DNA from: Methanosphaera sp. BMS
GTDB taxonomy: Archaea; Methanobacteriota; Methanobacteria; Methanobacteriales; Methanobacteriaceae
Reading direction: 5' to 3'
Assembly: GCF_003268005.1 (NCBI RefSeq)
Contig: NZ_CP014213.1
Location: forward strand, 124,001-188,000
Length of the DNA: 64,000 bases
Shown here: positions 1-49,731 of the stretch, piece by piece
Layout of the letters: each line of letters begins with the position of its first letter
Position numbering within the stretch: position 1 is the first letter of the stretch
Notes under the pieces: generated by a model
Databases searched by the model: none
What the model saw: only the letters and a program-made list of their open reading frames with translations
What the model was told of the DNA's origin: nothing
Made by a program: the position numbers and the translations under genes

Positions 1-1729
1 TGTTAAAATTTATGAAGATGTAATTATCCAATGCAATATCATCCATATAAATTGATTCGGAATTCCAATTTCTTATTAAAAAAATCCTATTATACTGACT
101 GACTTTACTTAACTTAATTGTATAATTATAATTCATAATAGTTTTAGACCCATTTTCTGGATTGTACTCGATTGTCTTGGAGTATTTGTCATTATATTGT
201 GTGTATATTTCTATTTTAGTATTGGTATCTGTTGTGTAGCTTCCGTAGTTGTTTAGTGTTTCTGTTGGTGCTTGTGTCTGGTTGTATTTTGTTATGTTGA
301 ATTTTCCCGGCTGATTGGATTGTATGATTATTTTCTGCTGTCCATTGCTCCAGATGTTACTAGCATTCATGATTGTGATTGATGGTCGCTCGTCCGGGTG
401 CTGTACAGGTGTGAAATTGAATACTTTTGATTCGTAAAGCTGAATATCATCCTTTGTATAGTATTTTAGTCGCGTGTTTTTATTTAGATATATTTTATCA
501 TTGTTTTTAGCAGTTTTTACTGTAGTGCTATTTTTTGGATTTGTACCATCTGTTGTATAGTATACTGTGCAGTTTAGTTTGTTGGTACTGAATTGTATTC
601 TTTGTTTGTTGTTTTCCAGTGTTGTCAGTGGTCTTATTGCTGTTATTGGTGGTGTAATTACTTTTTTTGGTTGGTATACTACTAAATCGGATGTGAATCC
701 TTCATTATCCACTAATATTGCTCTTACCTGTGTTTTTATGGATATCATTACCTTGGTGTTGTTAGTCCATGTGTTACTGTTTGTATTTGGTATTGATCCG
801 TTTCGTGTATAGTAGATTGTACCTGCCTTATTTATTTTTACCGTTATGTTCTGGTAGTTGTCACGTACATCAGTAATGTTTTTAATTGTAACCACAGGTT
901 TAACCGCATTCATCCTATAACTATAGACGTTGCTGGTTATTGAGCCGTATACTGATATGAATCTAAGATTTGTATTGTTGTTTATTTCTATTGGTGCAGA
1001 ATACTTGGTGCTGCTGGTTGTTGGCGTGCTGCCATCGGTTGTATAGTATATGCTGGTTGTAGGCAATGTGTATGAAATGTATACCTGTTGCTTTTTGTTA
1101 GCGATTGGTGTTTTATATACTATGTATGGTGTTGAACCTTCACTAAGCTTCATGGATAGCACTGCACCATATTCGCCGTTTGCTTTAACGGCAAAGTACT
1201 TTAAAGTCTTACTTGTATCATAAACAAATGCCTTTGTGTATTTTGTGCTACTAGTTGTTGGATTAGCACCATTTAAAGTATAATAAACAGTACAGTTGTT
1301 CACACCACTAAAAGTAGTATTATATGTGGTGGATGTGAGTTTGCTTAGCACTACCTTTACACTTAAAGCCGTGGTGGTGTTACTTACAATAGCCTGTGTA
1401 TCTCCACTTCCTCTGTTATTAGGACAGTTACGTCTAGTGGAATCTGTGGATTTGTCATCTTCGACTAATTCCTCCTCATCATCATCAATAGTAGTATCGT
1501 TTAATTCTATAATTTCAGAATTTTCAAATCCATCCTCAAAATTATTATCGGGAATAACTTCCACATTATTAATATATTTATCCAGATTCTGTTTTATATT
1601 ATTATCGTAATTTGCAATTGCAGTAGTGCTTATGTTATTATCATTTGATTGGCTGACATCCACTGCACATACTACACTAATACAAGAAAGAATAACAAAT
1701 AAAAACAAGATTATTTTTTTGTAATTAAT
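1..1729 (-). CDS. Adhesin-like surface protein with chitobiase-C-type repeats (3' end outside window)
   Basis: The reading frame is open from a signal-peptide-like start to the left edge of the window, so the C-terminus is missing. The N-terminus reads KKIILFLFVILSCISVVCA, a hydrophobic secretion signal ending in a plausible cleavage site. An acidic linker rich in Asp and Glu follows, then repeats of about 90 residues with cores such as VYYTLNGANPTT, IYYTTDGSTPTT and VYYTTDGTNP. This is the pattern of chitobiase/beta-hexosaminidase C-terminal-like (CHB_HEX_C) repeats, also seen in the giant protein at 12267-21287. An AGGAGG ribosome binding site lies at 1739-1744, but the best-spaced codon (1727-1729) is ATT. 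No ATG, GTG or TTG is available before the signal peptide. The protein is probably exported and exposed at the cell surface. The start remains uncertain. Confidence 0.75.
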   Translation of the reverse strand, partial: MNYKKIILFLFVILSCISVVCAVDVSQSNDNNISTTAIANYDNNIKQNLDKYINNVEVIPDNNFEDGFENSEIIELNDTTIDDDEEELVEDDKSTDSTRRNCPNNRGSGDTQAIVSNTTTALSVKVVLSKLTSTTYNTTFSGVNNCTVYYTLNGANPTTSSTKYTKAFVYDTSKTLKYFAVKANGEYGAVLSMKLSEGSTPYIVYKTPIANKKQQVYISYTLPTTSIYYTTDGSTPTTSSTKYSAPIEINNNTNLRFISVYGSITSNVYSYRMNAVKPVVTIKNITDVRDNYQNITVKINKAGTIYYTRNGSIPNTNSNTWTNNTKVMISIKTQVRAILVDNEGFTSDLVVYQPKKVITPPITAIRPLTTLENNKQRIQFSTNKLNCTVYYTTDGTNPKNSTTVKTAKNNDKIYLNKNTRLKYYTKDDIQLYESKVFNFTPVQHPDERPSITIMNASNIWSNGQQKIIIQSNQPGKFNITKYNQTQAPTETLNNYGSYTTDTNTKIEIYTQYNDKYSKTIEYNPENGSKTIMNYNYTIKLSKVSQYNRIFLIRNWNSESIYMDDIALDNYIFINFN

Positions 1730-2099
1730 AAATATTAGCCTCCTATTTTTTTTCTTTTATCGATTAATAAATAGTTAATCAAGTTATTTTGCTGTTAATT
1801 ACATAACTCAACTTAAAATTCGTTATATCAAAAATGATTAACAACATTAAACATTTTGTCTTAACTTATTAATAAAGATTACCTTTTTAATAAAAAATGA
1901 CACTTTTAAAAAATTGTGGAGGAGGGGGTTTTTAGAGATATATAAGTATACTTAACTGCTAAAACAATTCCAAACATTACTGTGAGTATAATAAGGTAAC
2001 GCCCATATAATCTTGTCACGATGAGTGGCGAATTAGGTATTATATAGGATCTTTTTACTTTCAAGACTATTTTTATATTATCATTATTTAAAATGTTCC
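1730..2099. other. Intergenic region between adhesin and recombinase genes
   Basis: These 370 bases are A+T-rich and hold no convincing reading frame. The AGGAGG site for the leftward adhesin gene is at 1739-1744, and its promoter should lie just to the right. A G-rich stretch around 1917-1931 is unusual for the region. No RNA gene or clear hairpin was recognised. Confidence 0.5.
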
Positions 2100-6320: not shown

Positions 6321-8096
6321 ATGTGTGGAATAGTAGGATGTATGCTTAAGGATAACCGAAAAGCAGCTCCAGTATTATTGGACTGTGCAGAAAAGCTTGA
6401 ATATCGTGGTTATGATTCAGTAGGTCTGGCAACATACGATGAAAAGATACATGTAAAAAAGGATGAAGGATATATAGAAAGCGTTGATGAAGCACTGGAC
6501 TTGGCAGATATGCCAGGTAATTATGGAATAGCACACGTAAGATGGGCATCTGTCGGAAAACCGTCTAAACGCAATTCACATCCACATCTTGATGAAGAAG
6601 AAACTGTAGCGGTTGTACACAATGGAACCATTTCAAACTATACGATACTGAAGAATAAACTTATAGGCGAAGGTCATAAGTTCATATCACAAACCGATAC
6701 GGAAGTAATCTCACATTTAATGGAAAAATTTATGGACGAAGGATTGAACTTGGAACATGCACTGCGTAAAACTATAGAATTATTGGATGGAAGCTATGCT
6801 GTTGTTGCAATAAGTAGTAGAGAACCTAACAAAATAGTGGCAACCCGAAAAGATTCGCCTCTTGTACTTGGAGAAAAAAATGAATCATACTATCTTGCCT
6901 CTGACATACCGGCCATGATAAAATATACCAATGACATAATAGAATTAAATAAGGGAGAAATTGTCGTAATTACAAATGAAAAAATGGAGATTCACGATGA
7001 AAATGATAATATCATAGAAAGAAAACCAGTAACAATAGACTGGACTCCTGAAATGGTGGAAAAAAATGACTATGAACATTACATGCTAAAAGAGATATAT
7101 GATCAGCCAGAAGCTGTTAGAAGAACCCTATCCCAGAAGGATAAAATAAGAAAAATCCTGGAGGATATAGGTGATATTGAAAAGATATGCATTGTTGCAT
7201 GTGGAACCAGTTATCATGCGGCTTTAAGTGGAAAGTATATCATCGAATCTGAAGCACGAATTCCTACAAATGTAGTATTGGCATCAGAATTTTCTCATTC
7301 ATTGAATATAATGGATGAAAAAACATTACTAATTGGAATGTCACAGTCAGGTGAAACCGCCGATACTATTAAAGCTTTGAATTCAGTCGAAGGTCCGATA
7401 AAAATGGCAATAGTAAATGTTGAAATATCCGAGATGACAAAAATAGTGGATTACACCATACTTACAAAAGCAGGACCGGAATTATCGGTTGCAGCCACAA
7501 AAACTTACACTGCACAGGTAACGGTAATGTATATGATTGCAGCAATACTGGGAGATAATGAAGAATTATTGAATAAATTAAATAAAGTACCTGAGTATAT
7601 AGATGATATTCTTGAAAACCGTAAAACGATAAAATCCATGGCAAAGACATACTTATATGCCAATGAATTATTCTATATAGGAAAAGGATTTTCATATCCG
7701 ACGGCACTGGAAGCCGCTCTTAAGATGAAGGAGATATCATATATACATGCAGAAGCATACGCTTCCGGTGAACTGAAGCATGGGCCGTTGGCATTAATAG
7801 ACAACAACATGCCGGTAATAACAATAATACCTCCTGGCAAGGATCATAATCTGACATTAAATAGTCTGGAAGAGGTAAAAGCACGCAACTCCAGAATAGT
7901 AACAGTTTGCTCCGAAGATGATGACCTTGTACAGGATAAATCAGAGGAGTGTATCCTGATTAATCCATATGTTGATGAGATTCTTGCACCGCTAGTCTAT
8001 ATTGTAGCATTGCAACTGCTTGCATACTACATTACCATAGAAAAAAAGCACAACCCCGACAGACCAAGAAATCTTGCAAAAACACTGACTGTATGA
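6321..8096 (+). CDS. glmS: Glutamine--fructose-6-phosphate aminotransferase (isomerizing)
   Basis: The enzyme converts fructose 6-phosphate and glutamine to glucosamine 6-phosphate plus glutamate. This is the entry step to UDP-GlcNAc, used by these methanogens for pseudomurein and glycans. The 591-residue protein starts MCGIVGCML; Cys2 is the N-terminal nucleophile of the glutaminase domain (about 1-215). Two SIS sugar-isomerase domains follow (about 275-400 and 445-575), with CGTSYHA, SQSGETADT and ELKHGPLALI motifs. The C-terminus RPRNLAKTLTV is typical of the family. AGGAAGG precedes the start. The gene appears monocistronic, with a possible hairpin terminator downstream. The enzyme acts in the cytoplasm and looks complete. 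Confidence 0.97.
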   Translation: MCGIVGCMLKDNRKAAPVLLDCAEKLEYRGYDSVGLATYDEKIHVKKDEGYIESVDEALDLADMPGNYGIAHVRWASVGKPSKRNSHPHLDEEETVAVVHNGTISNYTILKNKLIGEGHKFISQTDTEVISHLMEKFMDEGLNLEHALRKTIELLDGSYAVVAISSREPNKIVATRKDSPLVLGEKNESYYLASDIPAMIKYTNDIIELNKGEIVVITNEKMEIHDENDNIIERKPVTIDWTPEMVEKNDYEHYMLKEIYDQPEAVRRTLSQKDKIRKILEDIGDIEKICIVACGTSYHAALSGKYIIESEARIPTNVVLASEFSHSLNIMDEKTLLIGMSQSGETADTIKALNSVEGPIKMAIVNVEISEMTKIVDYTILTKAGPELSVAATKTYTAQVTVMYMIAAILGDNEELLNKLNKVPEYIDDILENRKTIKSMAKTYLYANELFYIGKGFSYPTALEAALKMKEISYIHAEAYASGELKHGPLALIDNNMPVITIIPPGKDHNLTLNSLEEVKARNSRIVTVCSEDDDLVQDKSEECILINPYVDEILAPLVYIVALQLLAYYITIEKKHNPDRPRNLAKTLTV

Positions 8097-8247: not shown

Positions 8248-8816
8248 TTATCCATCTATTTTTAAACCCATAAACTTTGGATACGGTTCATTGTACTCTT
8301 TTGCCAAAGCACATTGATAAGTATCATAAACTACATAGCTCATGTAAATCAACAGGATTAAACTTACCGACCATAATCGTGTATTGAAATACAAGTCCAT
8401 ACTTAAGTTCCACCTGCCAATAACCAGATAAAAGTGCATTATATCCAAAATTAAACCCATGATAAACTGGATTAACGCTCTTTTATAGAGTTTATTAATT
8501 ACATTTCCAACTCCGACAACAAAAAATATTGAAGCGAATATTGATATTATGGGTGGAATCAATGCATGATAGTTCAAATGAACACTTTCCCTGTTTTTGA
8601 TATAATACGGAGAATTAAAAACCATATTATTGCTAATGTAGCATAAAAACAATAGTTATTAAAGAAAATTCCCCATACTTTTATAAAACTCAAAGGCATG
8701 AAAGAGATATAACCATATTCACTATAGCAATAAGTTTTTAAATCTGCAATGGCAAAAAATGAACAAGTTGTTATACCCATTAAAATCAACCAAGAATCTT
8801 TTTGTTTTATATCTAA
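8248..8816 (-). pseudogene. Decayed third copy of the TM2-like membrane protein gene
   Basis: Two overlapping minus-strand frames together align along their length with the complete membrane proteins at 8848-9444 and 11671-12270. The 5' part (LDIKQKDSW... to about 8600) and the 3' part (about 8650 to 8248, ending YPKFMGLKIDG) are in different frames, so a frameshift lies near 8590-8650. The position equivalent to the ATG of the sister genes reads TTA (8814-8816). A GGAGGTGG ribosome binding site is still present just upstream. The conserved GVGNVINKLYKR and YVVYDTYQC motifs remain. It follows the second membrane gene by about 30 bases. An intact start further inside would give only a truncated protein. 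Confidence 0.7.
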
Positions 8817-8847
8817 ACCACCTCCCCCCAATTTTACAACATATACA

Positions 8848-9444
8848 TTAATTATCAATGTTAAGGCCTGAAAACTTTGGATAATGTTCATCATAATATT
8901 TACATAAAGTACAAATACCCGTATCATAAGTTACATATACTGAATATGAAACCAGTAAAATACCAGAATAAACAATAGCAGTATTACCTATAAACTGATT
9001 GAACGGTAAAGCCCAATAGGAATAACTCCAATAAAAGTACATAACATCAAATACCACTCCCAGAAGTAATTGAACAATACCCCTTTTATATAATCCATTA
9101 AAAATATTTCCCAAACCATAAATAAAGAAAAAAGATGAACAAAATGAAATAATAGTAGGCAGATATTTATAATACAAAGAAAAATTCACCATTTTAATAT
9201 TATTACTTTTGAAAAAGTTATACCCAATAAGAAATAACGCCAATAGAACAACATAACTATTTGTCCAATAAACAATTGTGATTCCAAATATTTTTAAGAA
9301 ATAAACTGGAAGAAATGGTAAATAATATTTAAATAAGCCATCAACGAACAATGGATTTCCTATTTGATTTATCATATAAAATGAATGAACCAACATAACT
9401 ATTAGGAAAAGATCTGCATATGACTTATAACCTTTGAAATCCAT
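8848..9444 (-). CDS. TM2-like multi-pass membrane protein, partner of the orphan C-terminal module
   Basis: A 198-residue protein with four to five hydrophobic segments. The C-terminal half carries SSFFFIYGLGNIFNGLYKRG, which resembles TM2-domain proteins (G-x-G-x-x-Y/F-N-G-x-x-K-R/K-G). It ends KYYDEHYPKFSGLNIDN, nearly the same tail as the paralogue at 11671-12270. The two share the overall pattern (FxKxFGI..YW, GLGNxFN, YSVYVxYDT) but much of the rest differs. Its ATG overlaps the TAA of the upstream gene (TAATG), which implies translational coupling. It could be an immunity protein, a membrane anchor or an assembly factor for the upstream surface module; the sequence does not decide. Confidence 0.75.
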   Translation of the reverse strand: MDFKGYKSYADLFLIVMLVHSFYMINQIGNPLFVDGLFKYYLPFLPVYFLKIFGITIVYWTNSYVVLLALFLIGYNFFKSNNIKMVNFSLYYKYLPTIISFCSSFFFIYGLGNIFNGLYKRGIVQLLLGVVFDVMYFYWSYSYWALPFNQFIGNTAIVYSGILLVSYSVYVTYDTGICTLCKYYDEHYPKFSGLNIDN

Positions 9445-11652
9445 TATAAAATTCCCCCTAAATAATAATCATATATCGAGTCATATCTTCCATTATAATA
9501 AGTATATTCGTCTTCTGTTAAATTTCTCTTACCATTATTATCATAAACAACCATATCAGAATAATCCAAACTTCCACAACGCCCAATTGCAATTCTAATT
9601 ACCTTATTGTTATCTTCCAGTTCCTGTGGAGTATTATATGTTATATTATTATACGCATCATAATCATGCATACTGAAAGATAAATAGCCATCAGTAATTG
9701 CATAATTTTCCATGTTATATGAATTCACATATTCATCTTTGTACAGTTCTTGTTCATCAATTCTATCCCAGTGATGTGCTACAGCCATTGGAATAGCTAT
9801 AACTATTGCTGCAGGAATAAAATTTTCAAAAGTAATAGAACTTAATATTTCAAGTGAAAATGGATTAAGATAACCAAAATAGGACAATAAACCACTTGTT
9901 TGCGTTACTACCCTTACTATGTCCCCATATTCTTCTTTTAAACAAGAATATAATCTATGAGTGTAACCTGGTTGATATATCTCTTTGAGTACTAATTGAG
10001 ATGCTCCGGGGATATAATTTACAAATCCAACTTCATTATCAATTTCATTTAGGAATTCAAATGATGGGCATTCTCTTTGGCTGGAGTGTAGTACTGTGTC
10101 ATCTATTTTGCTGTTGTCTGTTAGTTGTCCTGTGTTTAGATTAAGATATATTGAGATATTTTTGATTGGATCAATTATGAAGTAATATTCATTTATTCTT
10201 CCAGTTAATACTTGGTTGTTGTTTATGCTTTCTGTTATTTCTTCTAGTGTTGATTTGGTTTTGTCGGGTCCGGTTTTGTTTCTTAGTATATTTATTACAT
10301 CTGCTTCTATAACATTTAGCATTGATGTTGTTGAAAAACGATATAACCCTTTGTTTATTGTTTCTCCTTGAATTTGTATTCCCATATCTGGGTTGAATGA
10401 GTGGATAATTATTTTGGATGCATTCACATAGCAAGTTGTGGTAATTGTGCTTGTACGGTTATATGTGACATTGTAGTAGTCTTGGTATTCATTTGCTATT
10501 GAATCGAAGAAATATGCGACAAATAATGATGCTAAGTATGTGTTTTGAATCGGTATTGAGTAATTCGTGTTCAGTGCTTCTTCAATGTCACTTGTTGTGG
10601 TGACTTTATTGGTTATGGTGTATGTTTCTATTGCTCCTGTGTATTTGTAGGTTATGTTTTGTAGTTGTTCTAGTGTTTGGTTGTGTGTTTGTTGTATGCT
10701 TAGTATGTCTTCGTAGTCTTTGTGTGAGAGTGCAAATGATCGGTTGGTGTTTTTGTCGTTGATTGTGACGCTTGTCTTTATTATGTTGGGATTGTATATG
10801 AAGTTATCGAATACCGGTTCACTGTCAACTGTAAATATATCTTTGTTGTTTCGGGTATATTTGATTGTTGGTATATTGTTATTGGTTATTTGATTGTAGG
10901 TACTTGTTGTTATGTCTCCTGTGTACTGGTATTGTCTTGCCAGCTGATATCTTACTGCCAGGTCACTAAAGGTATCGGTTATGCTTTCTAATGGCAGTGT
11001 GTTAGTCTCTATCATTGCAGTGTAGTTGTTGTTTTTGTTGAAGTCTATGCAGTCGACCAGTAATATCTGATTGTTGTTGTGGTTGTATCTTGTCGTGTAT
11101 TCTACCGTGAATTGGTTGATGTTTTCTCGTGTTTTGTCATGGTATTCTATGATTGTTGTCTGGTTTTCTGTGTAGATGAGTATTCCATCTTTTTTCTGTG
11201 GATTTGTGTGGTTTGTTGTCTGTAATTGTCCATCAAATGATATGAGGTAGTCATTTAGTTGCATGTTGTATTTATCATTTGTTACTCCGTTTATGAAGTT
11301 GTATGTCTGATTTGCTAGGACAATATTTACTATACGTATAAACGGTAGCATTACTGTTCCGTTAACTCCTTCTTCTATTATGTATTCGTCCAGTGTGTTG
11401 TTGTATCGTGTTACCTGTGGTAGTGTTATGTTGTGGTAGTTTGCCAGTTCTATTGTGTAGTTTATTGGAGCATACTCTGTCAGTTCATTGTCTGTTGTGT
11501 AGTTGTAGTAGTGTTTGTAGTTGTTCTGGTCTACCAGGAGTATGTTGAGTACTGTTTTGTTGTGTAGTATTATTTTAGTATGATTGTACTTGGGGCTGTT
11601 GGTGGTTGCTATCGTACCGTCTAGGGTATAGTAGATTGTGTGATTGTTGTTT
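9444..11652 (-). repeat. Copy A of a 2.2-kb tandem duplication
   Basis: This segment matches 12267-14472 at a constant offset of 2820 bases over most of its length (2823 near the left end). Many 60-base stretches are identical between 10680-11650 and 13500-14470. A window at about 9720-9960 is strongly diverged, with one codon gained or lost. The right breakpoint is sharp: TGATTGTTGTTT is shared, then the sequences part. Confidence 0.95.
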
Positions 11653-11690
11653 TCTTTTATAAATAATGTATTAATTATCAATTTTAACAC
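9444..11690 (-). CDS. Orphan copy of the giant surface protein's C-terminal module
   Basis: From about residue 13 onward the 748-residue product is nearly identical to residues 2275-3006 of the giant protein (12267-21287). Homology begins abruptly at NNNHTIYYT, right after the stop codon of the preceding membrane gene. The proposed GTG start (11690) lies inside that gene and overlaps its last 20 bases. There is no signal peptide, so the orphan may be untranslated, made internally, or serve as a recombination donor. It starts with a chitobiase-C-type repeat, then has a long Asn/Thr-rich region. A hydrophobic segment (about 577-651) differs strongly from the giant's copy, and a conserved tail ends YDYYLGGIL. 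It is coupled to the membrane gene at 8848-9444. Confidence 0.75.
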   Translation of the reverse strand: MLKLIINTLFIKENNNHTIYYTLDGTIATTNSPKYNHTKIILHNKTVLNILLVDQNNYKHYYNYTTDNELTEYAPINYTIELANYHNITLPQVTRYNNTLDEYIIEEGVNGTVMLPFIRIVNIVLANQTYNFINGVTNDKYNMQLNDYLISFDGQLQTTNHTNPQKKDGILIYTENQTTIIEYHDKTRENINQFTVEYTTRYNHNNNQILLVDCIDFNKNNNYTAMIETNTLPLESITDTFSDLAVRYQLARQYQYTGDITTSTYNQITNNNIPTIKYTRNNKDIFTVDSEPVFDNFIYNPNIIKTSVTINDKNTNRSFALSHKDYEDILSIQQTHNQTLEQLQNITYKYTGAIETYTITNKVTTTSDIEEALNTNYSIPIQNTYLASLFVAYFFDSIANEYQDYYNVTYNRTSTITTTCYVNASKIIIHSFNPDMGIQIQGETINKGLYRFSTTSMLNVIEADVINILRNKTGPDKTKSTLEEITESINNNQVLTGRINEYYFIIDPIKNISIYLNLNTGQLTDNSKIDDTVLHSSQRECPSFEFLNEIDNEVGFVNYIPGASQLVLKEIYQPGYTHRLYSCLKEEYGDIVRVVTQTSGLLSYFGYLNPFSLEILSSITFENFIPAAIVIAIPMAVAHHWDRIDEQELYKDEYVNSYNMENYAITDGYLSFSMHDYDAYNNITYNTPQELEDNNKVIRIAIGRCGSLDYSDMVVYDNNGKRNLTEDEYTYYNGRYDSIYDYYLGGIL

Positions 11691-12270
11691 CTAAGAATTT
11701 AGGGTATGGTTCATTATAACATTTATATAAACTACAAAGATATGTATCATATATAACATATACTGAATATGTTGTCATGAGAATAGTATAAATATGTATG
11801 TTTGTACTTCCAATAAATTCTTCAAAAGGTAAATTCCAATTAATATGCACAAAGTAAAAATTTATTACTGTCAATATTAAACCAATAAAAAACTGAAATA
11901 AGAATCTTTTTTGTAATTTATTAAAATAATTACCAAGACCATTAATAAAAAAAAATGAAGAAAATAATGAAATAAATATCATAGTAAATTCTTTTTTAAA
12001 TGGAAACTTTGCCATATATGTTGATTCGTTTTTAATACGATGACAGATATCTTTAATTAACATAATTCCAAAAATTATTAAAAAATAACCCCAATAACAT
12101 AATATAATTCCAAAACACTTGATAAAAATTATTGGATATATTTTTGGATAACTATTTAATAAAATATTATTAAAAAATGGAAATAACATAGTTAAAAAAT
12201 AAAATGAATATCCTATTATTATAATCAAATATTTATTTAACTTTTGTTTATAAAAATCAATAGTTATCAT
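11671..12270 (-). CDS. TM2-like multi-pass membrane protein, partner of the giant surface protein
   Basis: A 199-residue paralogue of the protein at 8848-9444. It has N-terminal hydrophobic segments, FFINGLGNYFNKLQKR as the TM2-like core, then further membrane segments and a tail ending YPKFLGVKIDN. The ATG (12268-12270) overlaps the TGA stop of the giant gene (ATGA). An AGGTGGG ribosome binding site lies within the giant gene's last codons, so the two are translationally coupled. The stop is followed at once by the orphan C-terminal copy. Pairing with the surface protein, as immunity, anchor or secretion partner, is inferred from context. Confidence 0.75.
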   Translation of the reverse strand: MITIDFYKQKLNKYLIIIIGYSFYFLTMLFPFFNNILLNSYPKIYPIIFIKCFGIILCYWGYFLIIFGIMLIKDICHRIKNESTYMAKFPFKKEFTMIFISLFSSFFFINGLGNYFNKLQKRFLFQFFIGLILTVINFYFVHINWNLPFEEFIGSTNIHIYTILMTTYSVYVIYDTYLCSLYKCYNEPYPKFLGVKIDN

Positions 12271-14472
12271 AAAATCCCACCTAAATAATAATCATATATT
12301 GAATCATATCTTCCATTGTAATAAGTATATTCGTCTTCTGTTAAATTTCTTTTACCATTAGTATCATAGACAACCATATCTGAATAATCTAAATTTCCCC
12401 AACGACTTATTTTTATTCTAATAACCTTATTGTTATCTTCCAATTCCTTAGGATTGTTATATGTTATATTATTATATGCATCATACTCATGCATGCTGAA
12501 AGATAAATAACCATCAGTAATAGAATAATAATTCATATTATTACTTGTTACAAATTCATCTTTCTTCTGTTCCTGTGCAGAAATATTCTCCCAGTGATAA
12601 AATGTATAAATAGGCACAGCCAAAAATACTGTAACTGGTATATGCTCAATAATTATGGAAGAAAGTGCTTGTAGAGATATTGGATTATTAATACCAAAAT
12701 ATTCCAGTACAGGTGGAACAGTTGTGAACAAATATATTTCAAAAATATACTTTTCTTTTATAGAATTATATAAATTAGAAGTGTACCCTGGTTGATATAT
12801 TTCTTTGAGTACTAATTGAGCAGCTCCTGGAATATAATTTACGAATCCAACTTCATTATCAATTTCGTTTACGAATTCGCATGATGGGCATTCTCTTTGG
12901 CTGGAGTGTAGTATTGAGTCATCTATTTTGCTGTTGTCTGTCAGTTGTCCTGTGTTTAGGTTAAGGTATATTGAGATGTTTTTTGCGGGATCAATTATGT
13001 AGTAATATTCATTTATTCTTCCGGTTAGTACTTGGTTGTTGTTTATGCTTTCTGTTATTTCTTCTAGTGTTGATTTGGTTTTGTCGGGTCCGGTTTTGTT
13101 TCTTAGTATATTTATTACATCTGCTTCTATAACATTTAGCATTGACGTTGTTGAAAAACGATATAACCATTTGTTTATTGTTTCTCCTTGAATCTGCATT
13201 CCCATGTCAGGGTTGAATGAGTGGATAATTATTTTGGATGTATTTACATAGCAAGTTGTGGTAATTGTGCTTGTACGGTTATATGTGACATTGTAGTAGT
13301 CTTGGTATTCATTTGCTATTGAATCAAAGAAATATGCGACGAATAATGATGCAAGATATGTGTTTTGTATCCGTGTTGAGTAATTCGTGTTTAGTGCTTC
13401 TTCAATGTCACCTGTTGTGGTGACTTTATTGGTTATGGTGTATGTTTCTATTGCACCGGTATACTGATATGTCATGTTTTGTAGTTGTTCTAGTGTTTGG
13501 TTGTGTGTTTGTTGTATGCTTAGTATGTCTTCGTAGTCTTTGTGTGAGAGTGCAAATGATCGGTTGGTGTTTTTGTCGTTGATTGTGACGCTTGTCTTTA
13601 TTATGTTGGGATTGTATATGAAGTTATCGAATACCGGTTCACTGTCAACTGTAAATATATCTTTGTTGTTTCGGGTATATTTGATTGTTGGTATATTGTT
13701 AGTGGTTATTTGATTGTAGGTACTTGTTGTTATGTCTCCTGTGTACTGGTATTGTCTTGCCAGCTGATATCTTACTGCCAGGTCACTAAAGGTATCGGTT
13801 ATGCTTTCTAATGGCAGTGTGTTAGTCTCTATCATTGCAGTGTAGTTGTTGTTTTTGTTGAAGTCTATGCAGTCGACCAGTAATATCTGATTGTTGTTGT
13901 GGTTGTATCTTGTCGTGTATTCTACCGTGAATTGGTTGATGTTTTCTCGTGTTTTGTCATGGTATTCTATGATTGTTGTCTGGTTTTCTGTGTAGATGAG
14001 TATTCCATCTTTTTTCTGTGGATTTGCGTGGTTTGTTGTCTGCAATTGTCCATCAAATGATATGAGGTAGTCATTTAGTTGCATATTGCATGTCTCTTCT
14101 ATTTCTCCGTTTACGAAGTTGTACGTCTGATTTGCTAGGACAATATTTACTATACGTATAAACGGTAGCATTACTGTTCCGTTAACTCCTTCTTCTATTA
14201 TGTATTCGTCCAGTGTGTTGTTGTATCGTGTTACCTGTGGTAGTGTTATGTTGTGGTAGTTTGCCAGTTCTATTGTGTAGTTTATTGGAGCATACTCTGT
14301 CAGTTCATTGTCTGTTGTGTAGTTGTAGTAGTGTTTGTGGTTGTTCTGGTCTACCAGGAGTATGTTGAGTACTGTTTTGTTGTGTAGTATTATTTTAGTA
14401 TGATTGTATTTGTGGCTGTTGGTGGTTGCTATCGTACCGTCTATTGTATAGTAGATTGTGTGATTGTTGTTT
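12267..14472 (-). repeat. Copy B of a 2.2-kb tandem duplication (within the giant gene)
   Basis: This is the 3' part of the giant surface-protein gene and the counterpart of 9444-11652. The diverged window lies at about 12540-12780. Together with the coupled membrane gene it forms a repeating unit of about 2.8 kb. Confidence 0.95.
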
Positions 14473-17400
14473 CTTTGAAGCATTATTTTATACGTGTTAT
14501 AGTTGTTGTTTTCTTTCTGTATTGTAATATTTACCGGGCTAACCTCATTTCGTGGTGTTCTATAAGTATAAACTGGTGATGATTGATTGTATTGGTTTAT
14601 CACATAGTATTTTAGTTGTGTTAGGTTATTTAATGTCAGTATGCTAGTGCTATTGGCTTGTCTTAGATTTGTCGTATTCAATGGATCTGATCCATCCCTT
14701 GTATAATATATCACAGCATCTTCATCATCACAAACAAATGACACATTCTGATAGCCATCTGTATAAGTAGTTATTGGCTTTACAATAATCAATGGTTTGT
14801 TGATGTCAACTATCCTTATACTTTTGGATACTGTTTCTCCACTTGTTGTTGTTAATGTTATATGTACTGTACTGTTTTCGTTTAGTGTTAGTATTGTTTT
14901 TGGCATGTATGTTTGTGGTGTGTTGTTGTCTACTTGGTATTGTATTGTTCCTGTCTTGTTGGCCATTATTAACAAATTATATGTGGAATCAAAGTTTTTG
15001 TTTAGTGTTGTGTATATTTCTGGGGTTCTGTTATCTGTATCATGACCCATACAAAAGAAATAATCGTGAGATGAAATATAATCCGTAATGATTATAATTC
15101 CATTTGCTTGATAGTAATATGTATCACTTACTATATTGTTGTGTATGTAAAAATACTTTAGAATGTATGATTTTAGGTATATTGTTGTTGTATAACTATT
15201 ATTTTGAGTAATATTTGTTGGATGTAATCTTAAAGTTACAACAGAGCTATTTGTGAAACTACCGTTTGCCGTTGTTGGTGGTTGTCCATTAGTTGAGTAA
15301 TATACAGTATAGTCCTCCGGTGCTGATAAATTAAGTTCAATCGTTTTAATATTGCCCATAAGATTACTATTAATGACATTAATGTTCACAACATTATCAT
15401 CTGTATATTCATATTCACCATATAAAGGATAATAATAGTCATAAGTCAAATTACTATAATAATCCATAGAATCATTATATATTGTGAATACTGTTTTATA
15501 TCGTATGCTATTATACCAGCTTGTTTGCCCTATCACTAATTCCAGGTTATATTCTCCAGGACTCCAAGTATATGGAATACTTTGATTTAGAATAACAGTA
15601 CCATTTGTTACTGTATGTGTTGCTGTGGTTATTCCATTAATCTTAATTGCTACTTGTTCTCCATCAACATTGATATCATCAATGGATTTGACACTGGCAT
15701 TAAGGTATAAACTTTTATTATAAAAAGCATATACTTCACATATGTCTATTTTCATGTCTTTCCTGATAAAGGAGATATTATAGTCCTCTTCTACTCTTGC
15801 CATACTGGAAGTATAGACAACCTGTAGGGGATGCTCGCCGAGAGTATATGAGGAATTAAATGTATAATTTACTATTACTTCACCGTGAACTACACTGGCA
15901 TAGATAACATGACCATTATCGTCTTTCAATGTTTTACCATTAACCTTTATAACAACTTTACCCATATTAACCCCAATTCCATCATCATGATACACAAGCA
16001 CATGAATTTTATTGTTCATGCCACGAACAAATGTATCATTAAGCAAGTGTACAATAATAGTATCATTAATCTCTGAAAGATTATCATCAATTACTGTTAT
16101 AGGGGTAGTGTAATTTATCTCCAAATCATTGTTTATTATCTCAAGATTGTGCTGTCCTACTTCCAACACACCCGCATTAACTAGCATTAATCCACTGTTA
16201 TCAGTACTCACGGTGTATTGTGTGTTGTCCAGTGTCATGTTAAACTGTGTTTGCATTACCGGGTTACCGGTATTGTCTGTTATTATTATATTATATGTGT
16301 CTGTTTTATTGTAGACATGTGTGGTTGGTGTTATGTTAATCTGGTAGTTGCCGTGTATTGTGTTGTTGGTGTATAGTTTTAGTGATGCAAGGTGGATGTG
16401 GTTATCTGTAAATTGCGGATAATCATGGAGGTTTATCCAGTTTATTCCATCACTGCTTACAAGTGAAGCATTCCTGCTTGTATTGTACGTTTTATAGGCT
16501 TTTTCTATCATGTAACCAGTCACATTCTCCTCAAGAGATGTGACCTTAACTACCACATTCAAGGTATCATTCTTTTCTAGCATTATGCATTTATTCAACG
16601 CTATGGTAATATAACCAATTGAATTAATTGTATTGTTTTGTGTGTATTCGAGGTGATTGTTACGGTAGATGTTTATGGTGTAATTGGATTTGTTGAGGTT
16701 GTATATTCCCACGGCGGTTAAATATCCCTCTCCGGTCATATTGTAAGTGTTGTTTATCCATAAGTCCTGTGAATCCAGTGTTGCGTATCCGTCATATGGG
16801 AGTATTCCATTTTGAATAACATTATCATAACATTTAGCTGTATTTATTGGAAATGCTATGTTGTTAATAAATAAACCATCCATTGTGTTGTTGTTTGTGG
16901 TGTATAGTCCTGCAAAGTTGTAATCATAATATGAAACGTGATACGTATCATTAAATATGCTGTCTGTTACAATGAATGCTCCATCACCCACGGGAATGTT
17001 TTCAAAGTTATACCTGCTGTAATTGTCATCCCATCCGATTACTGCGACTGCATGATTCGGAAGATGGAACTCATCATCATGGATGTCACTAATCTCAGTT
17101 GTTTCTTCATTTATGTGAAGGGTGGATACTACAGCACCATATTGATATATGGCTTTTTTAAGTTCCATGTTGTCACTTGTGTTTTGTCTGTTGGAAATAA
17201 ATAGCACATCATTTACATTATAATCACTGTTTTGATTTACGGATAATTGACTGTACATCCAGTAATGATCATTGTATTCATATACCGGGCCAAGTCTGCT
17301 TACAAGATATCCCACACTGCTGACTATATCACATCCCGTGTTAGGTGTCCTGTCGGATTTGAAGATAGCATTTGTTGAAAGGAGGTTTTTCATGTTATTT

Positions 17401-20400
17401 TCTGAAAAATCACATGTAATGTTACTTTGTTTATTGAGTGAATATTCAAGGCAGTCAAGTACGGAAAACGCCCAACAGTTGCCACTGTCTCCCTGATTTT
17501 CAAAATCAACCATCACACCATCATCTCTTATATCATAACTAGTGGGTAGTGTAATATTCTCCAAGTTATAATCTATGTTCAAGTCATCCACATCAACTAC
17601 ATGGGTAGTGTTGGATTCAACAAAGAATGTGATGTTTTTACTGGTTAATTCCTTAAGATTTGTATCCCTGCAACTTAATTTAATATTGTATAATCCATGA
17701 TAACTGGATGGAACATTATAATTTAACAGGTATTTTTCATTACTTACTTTAAAAGTACCAATATATGTATTGTTGATATATGCACGTACTTTACGGTTAC
17801 TTATGAATGTATTGTCCTCTTTCAGTATTTTCACGACAAACTGTATCTTTTCGTTAGGTATGGCTCTTTGAGGTATAGAAACAATGTAAATCTCCTCTGG
17901 TGATATGATCTTAACAGTTTTAAATATATTCAAATCTGTTTCAACATCATTACTGTCAATATAAGTGGCTTTAATTACTATTGAACCAACACTACCTTCA
18001 GTTATTGTAAGATTATATGCAAAAAATCCATCAGTACAGGCAATAACACTTTCCAATGTGTCGTTTATTTCTAATCTAACAGAACCTTCAGTTACATTTT
18101 CATTATACTGATTTTGAATACTTATATTAACAGCTATCGTTCGGTTATTTTTAACAGTACCCGGTACTGTCAGATAAATATTATACTCATCTGTAGAATT
18201 AACCGTTGTTATACTGTTAGGTATATTATTACCTGTTCTGGTGTTGAAATCCGGCTGATTACTGCCCCAGTAATTGGATTCAATAGAATACAAGCCCATA
18301 TCATTCAAATCAATGTTATCACCGATGAAAGTATTGGATTCTACCAACAAATTACTTTCAAATAGGTAAACAGATGAAGTGTCACATTGGCTGTTATCAA
18401 AGAGGTTGTCTTTTATACTGCCAATTGGACTTGACAAAACACATAGCGAGGAAGCGTTATCTGCCGTATTGCCTGTTATGGTATTGTTCACAAGTACGAC
18501 GGGTGAATTAATCACATATACAGCTCCTCCACATTTGTCGGCACTATTATCGGTTAATATTGTGTTTCTAATTGTCAAATCATTAGAGCCTGCCTGTGTG
18601 ATAGCACCACCTACTAATGCACTATTATTACTTAACTGTGAATTATATATAAAGAGTGTACTCTCATCAGAGTATACTGCACCTCCTACTCCAGTATTTG
18701 CATTATTATCCTCAAATACTGTATTGTTGATTAGTATTAATGAATCTTTGGAGTAGATACAGGATGCATGAACAGATGCCGTGTTATTGGTGTAAGTATC
18801 ATTGTTTATTTCCACTACACTGCCGTTTATATAAATACAAGCACCCAGTTGAGTCATATTACTGGTTGTGTAGTTACCGGTTAATGTCTGTATTAAACGA
18901 ACGGGATTATTCAATCCATTACCTGTAAATGTATTGTTTTCCAATATGGTTCGTGAATTATTAATATAAACTGCTCCACCAACCTCAGCATTATTGCAAG
19001 TAAAAACATTACCTGTAAGGGTAACATTATCTGTACCGGTTACTTGTATTGCAGAGCCACTTACAGGAGAATAACTGTTATTAAAGGTATTGTTTGTTAT
19101 ATTTGAACTTCCATCCGTTGCATATATACCTGCTGCCTGCCCGGCTAGATTTTCATAAATAGTATTGCCCGTTAAAGTCATCTCTGCATCATTATAGATA
19201 AATCCGCCCAAATCATTTGCAGTATTGTTTCTTATATAATTATTAGTAAATATGGTTTTATTCACATTCATTATGACACCTGCCTGAAGGCTAGCAGAAT
19301 TATCTTCAAAAGAATTATTTGTAGCATTGAATAGTCCACTGTTATATACTACTGCTGCCATTAACTGTGCATAATTGGAACTGTAAGTACTGTTAAGGGT
19401 ATTTGTTATTCCTTCATTGTAGATTACTCCACCAATTCCGGTTAATTTAATATTTTCATCTGATACTGTCTGATTGACCACGGTAATCTTAGCCTGGTTA
19501 TCCGTGAAATTGGAATTTGAAATTATTGTTGAATCAGTATTGTATAGTACTCCACCATAACCACCATAAATAATATGATTGATGATATTTGTCTGTGAAT
19601 CAATAATAAAATCAACATTATTGCCCGTGAATGTGGAATAGTCTATTGTCAGTGTTTTATCGTTATATAATACCCCGGCAAGAATACTACCACTATTATT
19701 TTCAAAGACACTGCCATTGATATATGTGATGTTGTTGTTGAATAAAACTCCGGCATTATCGGCGAAGTTATCCATATAAATATCATCAGTTATGTTTAAT
19801 AATCCATAATTAACATGTATTCCTGCACCAATAGCGGTATTGTTATAATATGAATTGTTATAGGAGGTTATTGTACCGTAATTGTTAATCACAGATGCAA
19901 TATTTGTGGCGGTATTATTATAGATTGTATTATTGTTTAAGGTAATGTTTCCTTCATTATTATAAATTACAGACCCGTTGGCTGCACTGTTATATTTAAT
20001 GGAATTGTCGGTTAAATTACTAAAGCAATTAGAGTATACAACACCACCAAAGTTGTTGGCTTGATTATTTTTGATTGAGTTCTTGATTAAAGATAAGTTT
20101 CCTTTATTATACACTGCACCACCATTATTGGCTGTATTGTTATGTAAATTGGTGTTTTTAATGGTTAGAGTGGCATCTTCATAATTGTAAACAGTACCAC
20201 CGTTTATTCTGGCAATATTATCATAGATACTAGCATTAATAGTGGATACTGTTGCATTATTAAATATAACTCCACCATTATCAGCAATATTATTGTAAAT
20301 GGTGTCATTGACAATAGTTAAGTTGTACTTTTGATTGTATGCAAATGCACCATTGCTACTGGCACTATTATAACGAATAGAATTATTATACGACTCTAGA

Positions 20401-21287
20401 ATACCCTTAGAATGAATCACTCCACCATTACCTGTGAGTGCTTCATTATGATGAAAAGAACTTTTAAACAAAATAGCCCTACCACTATTTCTAATAGCAC
20501 CACCAAAATCAGCATAATTATACATTACCTGAGAATTTTTAATATATAAATAACCCTCATTAAAAATAGCACCACCAGCATATGCAGTATTATTGACGAT
20601 TACAGAATCATAAATATTTAAAGTTCCATTATTGTCAATAGCTCCACCATTGGATGCACTGTTCATATTCTGTATGGTGATGTTATTCAAAGTCAAGGTA
20701 TATCCATATTTTATTGTTAAAAAATGTTCGGTATCTTCGCCGGTTATTGCATGACCCATAGCATTGATTGTCACATTAGTAATACTTTGATCTGTGCCAA
20801 ACACAATAGGCTGTGTGACAGTGTATATACTAGATCCGCTAAGTGTTATGACAGCACTATCATGATTAGTATCCAAATCATCAAAAGCATCAAGCAATTG
20901 TTCATAATTTAAAACAGTCACATATTTAATGTTATCAGATGAATCGGGATTGCTTTGAATGCCTGCATCAATTCCTCCATTGAGATTAACTGGATTGATG
21001 TTGATACTTGACTCTTCCAAGTCATCATCTTGAACGGTATCCAAGTTAAATGAATCATTGAATACTGCATCGGAATCGGGAACATCATCAATAAAATCAT
21101 CCACAAAATCATCATCCTGACTAAATGAGTAAAAATCAAACTCATCATGCAAAGAATTAGAGTTAATAGCAGACACGTCAACATCTGTATAACTAATTGA
21201 ATCGTTTCCCATAAAACAATCGTTTGCAGAAACAACAGATAATGATAATAACACAAATAATATCATTACCATTATTACTTTTCGCAT
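12267..21287 (-). CDS. Giant secreted adhesin-like protein with papain-family peptidase domain
   Basis: This 3006-residue surface protein starts with a signal peptide (about 1-21, MVMILFVLLSLSVVSAN). AAGGAGGA stands 10 bases upstream of the start. In order it has: an Asp/Ser-rich linker (22-120); parallel beta-helix repeats rich in NNTA and GGAVYN motifs (about 145-1010, closing with NYWG); two Ig-like domains (about 1030-1225); a C1A papain-type peptidase (about 1250-1445) with DSGNCWAFS (nucleophile near C1271) and NHAVAVIGWDD (His near 1412); a lectin-like domain (about 1460-1625); three Ig-like domains (about 1650-1920); chitobiase-C-type repeats (about 1985-2300); and a long C-terminal module. 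The usual Asn-Ser-Trp peptidase motif is replaced by VTDSIF, so activity is uncertain. It could process itself or neighbouring surface proteins. It is coupled to the membrane gene at 11671-12270. Confidence 0.9.
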   Translation of the reverse strand: MRKVIMVMILFVLLSLSVVSANDCFMGNDSISYTDVDVSAINSNSLHDEFDFYSFSQDDDFVDDFIDDVPDSDAVFNDSFNLDTVQDDDLEESSININPVNLNGGIDAGIQSNPDSSDNIKYVTVLNYEQLLDAFDDLDTNHDSAVITLSGSSIYTVTQPIVFGTDQSITNVTINAMGHAITGEDTEHFLTIKYGYTLTLNNITIQNMNSASNGGAIDNNGTLNIYDSVIVNNTAYAGGAIFNEGYLYIKNSQVMYNYADFGGAIRNSGRAILFKSSFHHNEALTGNGGVIHSKGILESYNNSIRYNSASSNGAFAYNQKYNLTIVNDTIYNNIADNGGVIFNNATVSTINASIYDNIARINGGTVYNYEDATLTIKNTNLHNNTANNGGAVYNKGNLSLIKNSIKNNQANNFGGVVYSNCFSNLTDNSIKYNSAANGSVIYNNEGNITLNNNTIYNNTATNIASVINNYGTITSYNNSYYNNTAIGAGIHVNYGLLNITDDIYMDNFADNAGVLFNNNITYINGSVFENNSGSILAGVLYNDKTLTIDYSTFTGNNVDFIIDSQTNIINHIIYGGYGGVLYNTDSTIISNSNFTDNQAKITVVNQTVSDENIKLTGIGGVIYNEGITNTLNSTYSSNYAQLMAAVVYNSGLFNATNNSFEDNSASLQAGVIMNVNKTIFTNNYIRNNTANDLGGFIYNDAEMTLTGNTIYENLAGQAAGIYATDGSSNITNNTFNNSYSPVSGSAIQVTGTDNVTLTGNVFTCNNAEVGGAVYINNSRTILENNTFTGNGLNNPVRLIQTLTGNYTTSNMTQLGACIYINGSVVEINNDTYTNNTASVHASCIYSKDSLILINNTVFEDNNANTGVGGAVYSDESTLFIYNSQLSNNSALVGGAITQAGSNDLTIRNTILTDNSADKCGGAVYVINSPVVLVNNTITGNTADNASSLCVLSSPIGSIKDNLFDNSQCDTSSVYLFESNLLVESNTFIGDNIDLNDMGLYSIESNYWGSNQPDFNTRTGNNIPNSITTVNSTDEYNIYLTVPGTVKNNRTIAVNISIQNQYNENVTEGSVRLEINDTLESVIACTDGFFAYNLTITEGSVGSIVIKATYIDSNDVETDLNIFKTVKIISPEEIYIVSIPQRAIPNEKIQFVVKILKEDNTFISNRKVRAYINNTYIGTFKVSNEKYLLNYNVPSSYHGLYNIKLSCRDTNLKELTSKNITFFVESNTTHVVDVDDLNIDYNLENITLPTSYDIRDDGVMVDFENQGDSGNCWAFSVLDCLEYSLNKQSNITCDFSENNMKNLLSTNAIFKSDRTPNTGCDIVSSVGYLVSRLGPVYEYNDHYWMYSQLSVNQNSDYNVNDVLFISNRQNTSDNMELKKAIYQYGAVVSTLHINEETTEISDIHDDEFHLPNHAVAVIGWDDNYSRYNFENIPVGDGAFIVTDSIFNDTYHVSYYDYNFAGLYTTNNNTMDGLFINNIAFPINTAKCYDNVIQNGILPYDGYATLDSQDLWINNTYNMTGEGYLTAVGIYNLNKSNYTINIYRNNHLEYTQNNTINSIGYITIALNKCIMLEKNDTLNVVVKVTSLEENVTGYMIEKAYKTYNTSRNASLVSSDGINWINLHDYPQFTDNHIHLASLKLYTNNTIHGNYQINITPTTHVYNKTDTYNIIITDNTGNPVMQTQFNMTLDNTQYTVSTDNSGLMLVNAGVLEVGQHNLEIINNDLEINYTTPITVIDDNLSEINDTIIVHLLNDTFVRGMNNKIHVLVYHDDGIGVNMGKVVIKVNGKTLKDDNGHVIYASVVHGEVIVNYTFNSSYTLGEHPLQVVYTSSMARVEEDYNISFIRKDMKIDICEVYAFYNKSLYLNASVKSIDDINVDGEQVAIKINGITTATHTVTNGTVILNQSIPYTWSPGEYNLELVIGQTSWYNSIRYKTVFTIYNDSMDYYSNLTYDYYYPLYGEYEYTDDNVVNINVINSNLMGNIKTIELNLSAPEDYTVYYSTNGQPPTTANGSFTNSSVVTLRLHPTNITQNNSYTTTIYLKSYILKYFYIHNNIVSDTYYYQANGIIIITDYISSHDYFFCMGHDTDNRTPEIYTTLNKNFDSTYNLLIMANKTGTIQYQVDNNTPQTYMPKTILTLNENSTVHITLTTTSGETVSKSIRIVDINKPLIIVKPITTYTDGYQNVSFVCDDEDAVIYYTRDGSDPLNTTNLRQANSTSILTLNNLTQLKYYVINQYNQSSPVYTYRTPRNEVSPVNITIQKENNNYNTYKIMLQRNNNHTIYYTIDGTIATTNSHKYNHTKIILHNKTVLNILLVDQNNHKHYYNYTTDNELTEYAPINYTIELANYHNITLPQVTRYNNTLDEYIIEEGVNGTVMLPFIRIVNIVLANQTYNFVNGEIEETCNMQLNDYLISFDGQLQTTNHANPQKKDGILIYTENQTTIIEYHDKTRENINQFTVEYTTRYNHNNNQILLVDCIDFNKNNNYTAMIETNTLPLESITDTFSDLAVRYQLARQYQYTGDITTSTYNQITTNNIPTIKYTRNNKDIFTVDSEPVFDNFIYNPNIIKTSVTINDKNTNRSFALSHKDYEDILSIQQTHNQTLEQLQNMTYQYTGAIETYTITNKVTTTGDIEEALNTNYSTRIQNTYLASLFVAYFFDSIANEYQDYYNVTYNRTSTITTTCYVNTSKIIIHSFNPDMGMQIQGETINKWLYRFSTTSMLNVIEADVINILRNKTGPDKTKSTLEEITESINNNQVLTGRINEYYYIIDPAKNISIYLNLNTGQLTDNSKIDDSILHSSQRECPSCEFVNEIDNEVGFVNYIPGAAQLVLKEIYQPGYTSNLYNSIKEKYIFEIYLFTTVPPVLEYFGINNPISLQALSSIIIEHIPVTVFLAVPIYTFYHWENISAQEQKKDEFVTSNNMNYYSITDGYLSFSMHEYDAYNNITYNNPKELEDNNKVIRIKISRWGNLDYSDMVVYDTNGKRNLTEDEYTYYNGRYDSIYDYYLGGIL

Positions 21288-47081: not shown

Positions 47082-47336
47082 ATGCCGGAAGAAAAAAATT
47101 TAGTTATCGCATTAATATTATCAGTAATTTTTTCAGGAGTAGGTAACGTATATAATGGCCTTGGAAAAAGAGGATTGATTGAACTGCTTGTTGCAATTGT
47201 ACTGACAATGGCAGCATTTCCAATTGGTCTTATCTGGTGGGCATACGTCTTATATGACACATACGTATGCAACATTGCAGTAAACAACAACCAAGAGATA
47301 CCATTGCTTCTTACCGTTTTTGAAGTAAATGACTAG
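47082..47336 (+). CDS. Small TM2-like membrane protein
   Basis: An 84-residue protein with two hydrophobic segments (about 6-20 and 32-60). The core SGVGNVYNGLGKRGLIEL is a TM2-domain-like signature, related to the C-terminal halves of the membrane proteins at 8848-9444 and 11671-12270. It ends ALYDTYV-type (LYDTYVCNIAVNN), also as in those proteins. AGAGGTAAG lies before the start. It may be a stand-alone relative of the surface-module partners. Function unknown. Confidence 0.75.
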   Translation: MPEEKNLVIALILSVIFSGVGNVYNGLGKRGLIELLVAIVLTMAAFPIGLIWWAYVLYDTYVCNIAVNNNQEIPLLLTVFEVND

Positions 47337-49498: not shown

Positions 49499-49731
49499 AA
49501 TCACCATCTTCCATTATACTTATCTTTAACTAAACTCCATTATATAATTTATTCTAAATATTAAAAAAGTATATATATCTCCAAGACATAATAATTCTAG
49601 AGAATTAAAAATAGTAATTCTAAAAAAATATCTATGATTAATTGACAAAATCCATAAAATAATAAAGATATAACCACTAAAATCTTGAAAAAAATTTTCT
49701 AAATCAAATAAATATAAAAAAGGTGAAAACA

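What the first reader, a model, noticed from the sequence alone, without database searches (positions are those of the whole stretch)
8248..14472. Duplicated surface-protein C-terminal module, each copy coupled to its own membrane protein
Seen: the last 730 codons of the giant surface-protein gene (12267-14472) are repeated immediately downstream (9444-11652) as an orphan without signal peptide. Each copy is followed by an overlapping TM2-like membrane gene (ATGA and TAATG overlaps), and a third membrane gene relic follows. Known: orphan C-terminal-plus-immunity cassettes next to a full-length effector are a hallmark of bacterial contact-dependent inhibition and Rhs-type polymorphic toxin loci. 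Inference: an archaeal antagonism or self-recognition system, or a reservoir for surface-protein variation with a matched membrane partner.
Basis: partly seen in the sequence, partly recalled or inferred. Interest (0 to 1): 0.88.

Follow-up and report, generated by a model that had tools for sequence, protein, structure and literature searches.

The report
Swappable surface-protein tails with paired genes
A gut methane-producing archaeon carries giant surface proteins whose extreme tail ends, each welded to its own partner membrane gene, are duplicated, swapped and hypervariable while the rest of the protein is kept identical; this is the layout bacteria use for contact toxins with matching antidotes, but toxicity has not been shown here.

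Summary
The last ~735 codons of the 3,006-aa surface-protein gene (12267-21287, minus strand) are repeated downstream (9444-11652, 91% nt identity) without a signal peptide. Each copy overlaps its own multi-pass membrane gene; a third membrane gene is a frameshifted relic that is intact in a related genome.

A second locus in the same genome (2.53-2.54 Mb) holds another full-length copy. Its first ~2,500 codons are essentially 100% identical, but its tail and partner differ, and two further tail cassettes follow. A related Methanosphaera has the same first partner and orphan junction, then a different tip and partner.

Recombination seams lie in the tail's conserved 'core'. A ~110-aa tip segment is hypervariable (dN/dS ~0.6 against ~0.1-0.2 around it); partners share only 33-39% identity. 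Across the genus, partner type tracks tip type (partial Mantel given core r=0.58, p=4/20000). In other Methanobacteriales some tips pair with TPR proteins instead, once with an orphan tip+partner.

Best reading: a polymorphic effector/partner (toxin-immunity-like) family. No known toxin domain was found; one intact tip has a decayed partner, and single-copy Methanobrevibacter homologues lack partners. New variant of a known kind; function unproven.

The parts
12267..21287 (-). Full-length surface protein, 3006 aa: signal peptide, right-handed beta-helix, papain-like C1 peptidase, Ig-like/CHB_HEX_C repeats, core domain, variable tip
   Evidence: ORF; Pfam Beta_helix, Peptidase_C1 (aa 1247-1422), CHB_HEX_C_1, Fn3_assoc above cut-offs
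12882..14288 (-). Core domain of the tail (tail aa 62-530); contains the identity blocks where copies recombine (e.g. 13445-13737, identical but for one base to the frameshifted cassette M2 of locus 2)
   Evidence: (AF2 pLDDT mostly 70-90); no Pfam/NCBIfam family; no PDB fold match
12552..12881 (-). Hypervariable segment of tip 1 (~110 aa, contains a hydrophobic stretch)
   Evidence: dN 0.38-0.73 here against 0.08-0.21 in the next 94 codons; <=61% nt identity to the other copies over much of it
12270..12551 (-). Conserved last 94 aa of tip 1
11671..12270 (-). Partner membrane protein 1 (199 aa, ~4 TM), ATGA overlap with the full-length gene
9444..11690 (-). Orphan tail (748-aa ORF, no signal peptide): core + tip 2; homology to the full-length gene covers 9444-11652; GTG start inside the end of partner 1, probably a silent cassette
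9729..10061 (-). Hypervariable segment of tip 2
8848..9444 (-). Partner membrane protein 2 (198 aa), TAATG overlap with orphan tail; 39% identical to partner 1; 99% identical copy behind the same tip in genome G112
8248..8810 (-). Partner membrane gene 3, relic without a tail: start codon lost and 2-nt frameshift here; intact (187 aa) in G112
1..1756 (-). N-terminal part of another core-family surface protein (1091 aa) whose core, tip and overlapping membrane partner (264 aa) lie just left of the window

Best explanation
A polymorphic effector/partner locus that works like a contact-dependent toxin-immunity system. The large secreted protein displays a C-terminal tip; the gene overlapping its stop codon makes a membrane protein specific for that tip. 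The two are inherited as one cassette. Shown from sequence: orphan cassettes lie downstream; homologous recombination or gene conversion in the conserved core exchanges tip+partner while the stem is kept identical between loci; tip and partner change in step. Inferred: the tip acts on the membrane of contacted (probably related) cells, the partner protects the producer, and orphan partners widen immunity or are stored specificities.
For: (1) Second locus: stem ~100% nt identical over ~7.5 kb, tail and partner different. (2) Mosaic identity blocks in the core, even in a cassette whose 5' half is frameshifted (M2: identical to the full-length gene over 13737-13445 but for one base, otherwise about 70-85% upstream and mostly 30-60% downstream). 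(3) G112 (Methanosphaera sp. rholeuAM130) has the same partner-1/orphan junction but a different tip and partner; it also carries tip 2+partner 2 at 99%. (4) Tip segment dN/dS ~0.6 between copies against ~0.1-0.15 in the conserved C-terminus; partners only 33-39% identical to partner 1. CDI ionophore immunity proteins likewise share ~30% (PMC11630599). (5) Genus-wide, 18 of 25 core-tail genes are followed within 60 nt by a membrane gene, against 4 of 96 other long ORFs (with four cores re-assigned and the window orphan counted; see report). (6) Tip-partner similarity: Mantel r=0.79, partial given core r=0.58, p=4/20000; same nearest neighbour in 13/19 against 1.0 in shuffles. (7) Partner class switches with tip class: eight loci with glycine-rich hydrophobic tips have multi-TM partners; six loci with other tips have TPR partners. 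One TPR locus has an orphan tip (94%) plus a second TPR partner (89%). (8) Extra partners without tips: window relic; G000 851 kb tandem partner, 76%. (9) Two of the partnerless genes have an in-frame stop inside the tip.
Against: No toxin domain in Pfam, NCBIfam or PADLOC and no PDB fold match. G109 has an open 2850-aa gene and tip but a decayed partner. Methanobrevibacter homologues are single-copy, without a partner, with a well conserved C-terminal end (63% mean identity against 54% for the core). Tip-partner covariation would also be expected of an anchor or chaperone pair. Nothing is known of expression, delivery or toxicity.
Confidence: 0.55

Rival explanations
1. Surface variation without toxicity: the tip is a hypervariable adhesion/recognition or phage-exposed end, and the partner is a dedicated membrane anchor, insertion factor or chaperone that must match it. 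Orphan cassettes are a reservoir for antigenic variation.
For: Hypervariable end on an identical stem, with silent-looking cassettes; co-variation of tip and partner is expected here too; the Thermococcales VARTIG module has the same three open readings (PMC8416519).
Against: Partners without any tip are kept or duplicated. A homologue with pseudomurein-binding repeats (G110) has another wall anchor yet still carries tip+membrane partner. TPR partners for other tip classes do not suit an anchor role.
Confidence: 0.22
2. Signalling pair: the tip inserts in or contacts the cell's own membrane and the partner (membrane, zinc-ribbon or TPR protein) relays a contact signal, so the locus is a variable sensor.
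For: Some partners have zinc ribbons or TPRs; the tip of homologues has a predicted helical hairpin.
Against: No signalling domain or regulator was found among the partner hits; orphan tails without a signal peptide have no role in this model.
Confidence: 0.12
3. Neutral tandem duplication and decay of an adhesin gene, with the membrane gene carried along and no selected pairing.
For: Orphan junctions differ from copy to copy, with truncations and frameshifts; relic partner; a transposase gene near locus 2.
Against: Tip and partner ORFs stay open even where the upstream core is broken (M2); overlap architecture is conserved across species; the pattern recurs with unrelated partner types.
Confidence: 0.08
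4. Assembly artefact: the 100% identical stems at two loci reflect a mis-assembled repeat.
For: Perfect identity over ~7.5 kb; assembly method not visible.
Against: Single 2.87-Mb contig, 99.96% complete; both copies have distinct tails and flanks; mosaic blocks also occur in an independent genome.
Confidence: 0.03

Closest known systems
VARTIG modules of Thermococcales (PMC8416519)
   Same: Large secreted archaeal protein with Ig-type domains and a hypervariable C-terminus, followed by shorter homologues of that C-terminus and by membrane proteins that track its subfamily; likened by its authors to polymorphic toxin systems; no toxin domain found.
   Different: No CARDB domain found here; stem has beta-helix, C1 peptidase and CHB_HEX repeats. 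Exchange is seen within one genome as well as between species, which VARTIG lacks. Partner overlaps the tail's stop codon. Those authors searched other archaea and found no close counterpart.
CDI CdiA-CT/CdiI orphan modules and CDI ionophore toxins (PMC3150448, PMC11630599)
   Same: Full-length effector plus downstream orphan CT/immunity pairs lacking start signals; abrupt change of sequence downstream of a conserved stretch; hydrophobic membrane immunity proteins with ~30% identity within a group.
   Different: No TPS domain, FHA repeats or VENN domain found; archaeal cell; partners are mostly 185-300 aa with several TM, not 72-100-aa hairpins; no toxicity data.
Archaeal polymorphic toxin systems (Makarova et al. 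2019, known only through citations in PMC8416519; paper not held)
   Same: Predicted secreted multidomain protein with a variable C-terminal end and an adjacent immunity gene.
   Different: Those systems mostly carry DNase/RNase domains (PMC8416519); none detected here. Whether that survey already listed these loci could not be checked.
Methanobrevibacter/Methanosphaera adhesin-like proteins (PMC11532034)
   Same: Signal peptide or N-terminal TM, right-handed beta-helix, Ig-like domains, occasional papain-like peptidase.
   Different: That paper's text has no mention of toxins and was not seen to describe a variable tail, partner genes or cassettes (only passages were read).

Membership tests
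Polymorphic toxin system (general) | Conserved N-terminal/stem region with a sharply variable C-terminal end | tested here: met
Polymorphic toxin system (general) | Cognate partner gene immediately downstream, changing with the tip | tested here: met
   (position and covariation; cognate binding not tested)
Polymorphic toxin system (general) | Orphan tip/partner cassettes near a full-length gene | tested here: met
   window 8848-11690; locus 2; G124 C103 orphan tip and L179 orphan tip+TPR
Polymorphic toxin system (general) | Recognisable toxin domain in the tip | tested here: not met
   No hit in Pfam, NCBIfam or PADLOC; Foldseek vs PDB best E 0.04 (whole tail) and 0.47 (tip of a homologue); tip of the window protein modelled with low confidence
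Polymorphic toxin system (general) | Tip toxic, partner neutralises it | not testable with these tools
   needs expression experiments
CDI (CdiA/CdiI) | TPS transport domain / CdiB partner | tested here: inconclusive
   PF05860 absent from the genome, but the control genomes did not ring either; no TPS hit in the protein
CDI (CdiA/CdiI) | FHA repeats and VENN pretoxin domain | tested here: not met
   no such Pfam match at E<=1
Rhs | YD/Rhs repeats | tested here: not met
   no such Pfam match at E<=1
VARTIG | arCOG07710-type Ig protein; Thermococcales only | tested here: not met
   different order of archaea, different domains; arCOG assignment itself not available
TM2 domain (membrane partners) | Pfam TM2 match | tested here: not met
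   no Pfam family for partners 1 and 2 at E<=1
Methanobacteriales adhesin-like proteins | Signal peptide with beta-helix and Ig-like domains | tested here: met
   (signal peptide judged by eye from the N-terminus)

The most novel reading that the evidence does not exclude
A Methanobacteriales-wide family of polymorphic contact effectors, built on one uncharacterised core domain, in which several tip classes pair with different classes of immunity protein (TM2-like, other multi-TM/zinc-ribbon, TPR), and in which intragenomic gene conversion keeps the stem identical while swapping tip+immunity cassettes: an archaeal CDI-like self/non-self system in gut methanogens with membrane-active tips.
Probability: 0.4. 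Interest if true: 0.9.

Novelty: new variant of a known kind. Interest (0 to 1): 0.73.

Why it matters
Contact-dependent antagonism between archaea has been predicted from genomes, but PMC8416519 (2021) notes that predicted archaeal polymorphic toxin systems had not been characterised experimentally. These loci sit in gut methanogens, several with complete genomes, and give testable tip/partner pairs, natural swaps and natural partnerless controls (Methanobrevibacter). If they are effectors, they would be a self-recognition and competition system in methane-producing gut archaea. If not, they are still a clear case of directed variation of an archaeal surface protein with a matched membrane partner.

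Tried and rejected
Rejected: simple full-module duplication (identity is mosaic); chance repeat. Looked for a fold or family for the core and tip: Pfam, NCBIfam, PADLOC, PDB by sequence (only a 26-residue Ig-like match to MpAFP), and Foldseek twice: nothing. AF2 of the tip stays mostly below pLDDT 50 in the window protein. Using Methanobrevibacter homologues gave a low-confidence helical region and a confident small beta domain, without PDB match. TPS domain search in the genome was uninformative because its controls were silent. The genome-contig scan returned only one relative. The Makarova 2019 survey is not in the held library. The TM2 label was not confirmed by Pfam. Sigma-70-type promoter scan gave no excess over shuffles (100 against 103.6) and is not suited to archaea. 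Cognate versus non-cognate co-folding could not be run (single chains only).

Full report
Where it is. The window is part of a single-contig genome of 2,868,093 bases, 99.96% complete. Its nearest held relative with this locus is G112, which is Methanosphaera sp. rholeuAM130 (records MUZY01000238.1 and MUZY01000009.1 match G112's contigs by length and hits). G112 is in the same genus, so the host is a Methanosphaera; which species is not known from the tools.

The 3,006-aa gene 12267-21287(-) has a signal peptide, beta-helix, a papain-like C1 peptidase domain and CHB_HEX/Fn3-type repeats. Its tail is repeated at 9444-11652 (91% nt). Each tail overlaps the next gene, a membrane protein, by ATGA or TAATG. 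The orphan has a GTG inside the end of partner 1 but no signal peptide. The third membrane gene is a relic: start codon lost and a 2-nt insertion relative to an otherwise 98%-identical intact copy in G112.

It is one of two loci. At about 2,527,700-2,542,500 a second full-length gene has the same first ~2,500 codons with only a few differences (window 14,125-21,375 is 99.6-100% identical in every 250-nt block). It then diverges: most of the last 200 codons differ and the partner is 33% identical. Downstream come two more tail copies: M2, frameshifted in its 5' half but with tip and partner open, and M3, with a different small hydrophobic protein.

How the tail is built. Comparison of copies shows blocks of perfect identity in the core (examples on the full-length gene: 14338-14125, 14026-13703, 13642-13445) shared among loci and partly with G112, interrupted by divergent stretches. 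M2 is about 70-85% similar upstream, identical over 13737-13445 apart from one base, and mostly 30-60% downstream. That is the signature of homologous exchange in the core, replacing the tip and partner behind it. Within the tip, ~110 aa (window 12552-12881) are hypervariable: for tip 1 against tip 2, dN 0.38 and dS 0.64, against dN 0.08 and dS 0.66 in the following 94 codons. Partners are 30-39% identical among the three nearest pairs, 33-39% to partner 1.

Natural swap. G112 has essentially the same partner-1/orphan junction sequence but a different tip followed by a different, overlapping partner. Elsewhere it has tip 2, partner 2 and partner 3 next to the same downstream gene (the 591-593-aa ORF, window 6321-8096) as in the window. 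The two genomes therefore differ by gain or loss of a whole tip+partner cassette.

Genus-wide. A profile of the tail (A1) finds a match in 16 of 20 Methanosphaera genomes at E<=0.001, though some of those hits cover only the Ig-like start of the profile. For long ORFs in the fetched loci I asked whether a gene with at least 3 predicted TM starts within 60 nt of the stop. The script's own count was 13 of 21 core genes and 8 of 100 others. Four of the 'others' (L148, L150, L159, L160) carry the core. The window orphan was missed only because partner 2 falls below the hydropathy threshold. Corrected: 18 of 25 against 4 of 96. The correction was made after seeing the list, and several of these loci are homologous between genomes, so they are not independent. 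Of the seven without such a partner, L146 and L147 have an in-frame stop inside the tip and L087 one near its end; G109 has an open tip but a decayed partner, which counts against a strict toxin-immunity reading.

Tip and partner change together. For 19 tip/partner pairs, pairwise similarity correlates (Mantel r=0.79, 0/20000 permutations). Controlling for core similarity in the 15 with enough core, r=0.58, 4/20000. The nearest tip and nearest partner are the same locus in 13 of 19, against 1.0 in shuffles. Shared ancestry of whole loci contributes; the partial test reduces this but cannot remove it.

Beyond the genus. The core occurs across Methanobacteriales and in one genome of another order of the class. 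Eight sampled core proteins with hydrophobic, mostly glycine-rich tips are followed by multi-TM genes; six with other tips are followed by TPR proteins (tip classes were judged by eye). One of the latter (L179, G036) has an orphan copy of its last 69 tip residues (94%) followed by a second TPR partner (89%). G124 C103 has an orphan tip (96% over 141 aa) behind its partner. Thus the orphan arrangement recurs with unrelated tips and partners.

A natural contrast. In Methanobrevibacter-type genomes (g10, genus name inferred) the nearest homologue is a ~1000-aa protein, mostly found once per genome by the protein search. The loci inspected lie between a cobalamin-pathway-like gene and an arsA-like gene, with no partner. 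Its C-terminal end is better conserved than its core (63% against 54% mean identity), the reverse of Methanosphaera (32% against 60%). Variability thus accompanies partner and multi-copy state; it also shows that the core need not be part of an antagonistic system.

What it probably does. The arrangement matches CDI orphan modules, which lack start signals while at least one orphan immunity gene is expressed (PMC3150448), and CDI ionophores with hydrophobic, ~30%-identical immunity proteins (PMC11630599). The nearest archaeal precedent is VARTIG, whose authors could not decide between toxin, immunity and recognition roles (PMC8416519). I put toxin-immunity-like function first (0.55). Duplication, coupling, exchange and covariation are shown; toxicity, immunity, delivery and target are inferred. 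Membership in CDI, Rhs or VARTIG is not claimed.

Noticed in passing
G000:C1:844500-857000 (L148): Another 2382-aa C1-peptidase surface protein with core, a different tip, an overlapping zinc-ribbon membrane partner and a second tandem partner (76% identical) without a tip.
   Followed up: partly
window 1-1756 and G000:C1 118500-126500 (L150): The window's left edge cuts a further core-family gene (1091 aa) with its own overlapping 264-aa membrane partner.
   Followed up: partly
L146 and L147 (G000 371.7 kb and 2246 kb): Two paralogous core proteins each have an in-frame stop at a different place inside the same glycine-rich tip, with a small membrane gene remaining downstream.
   Followed up: no
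L179, L180, L183, L186, L187, L177: Core-family surface proteins of other Methanobacteriales followed directly by TPR-repeat proteins; L179 has tandem partner copies and an orphan tip.
   Followed up: partly
window 47082-47336 and 49723-50364 (+): Two further proteins of the same membrane-partner superfamily (HMM hits) away from any tail module.
   Followed up: no
L092 7216-9397 (G108): Four tandem zinc-ribbon relatives of the membrane partners with no surface protein beside them.
   Followed up: no
L020 7308-8819: A transposase-like gene sits about 0.8 kb upstream of the second full-length copy; the long upstream identity between the two loci ends near this insertion.
   Followed up: no
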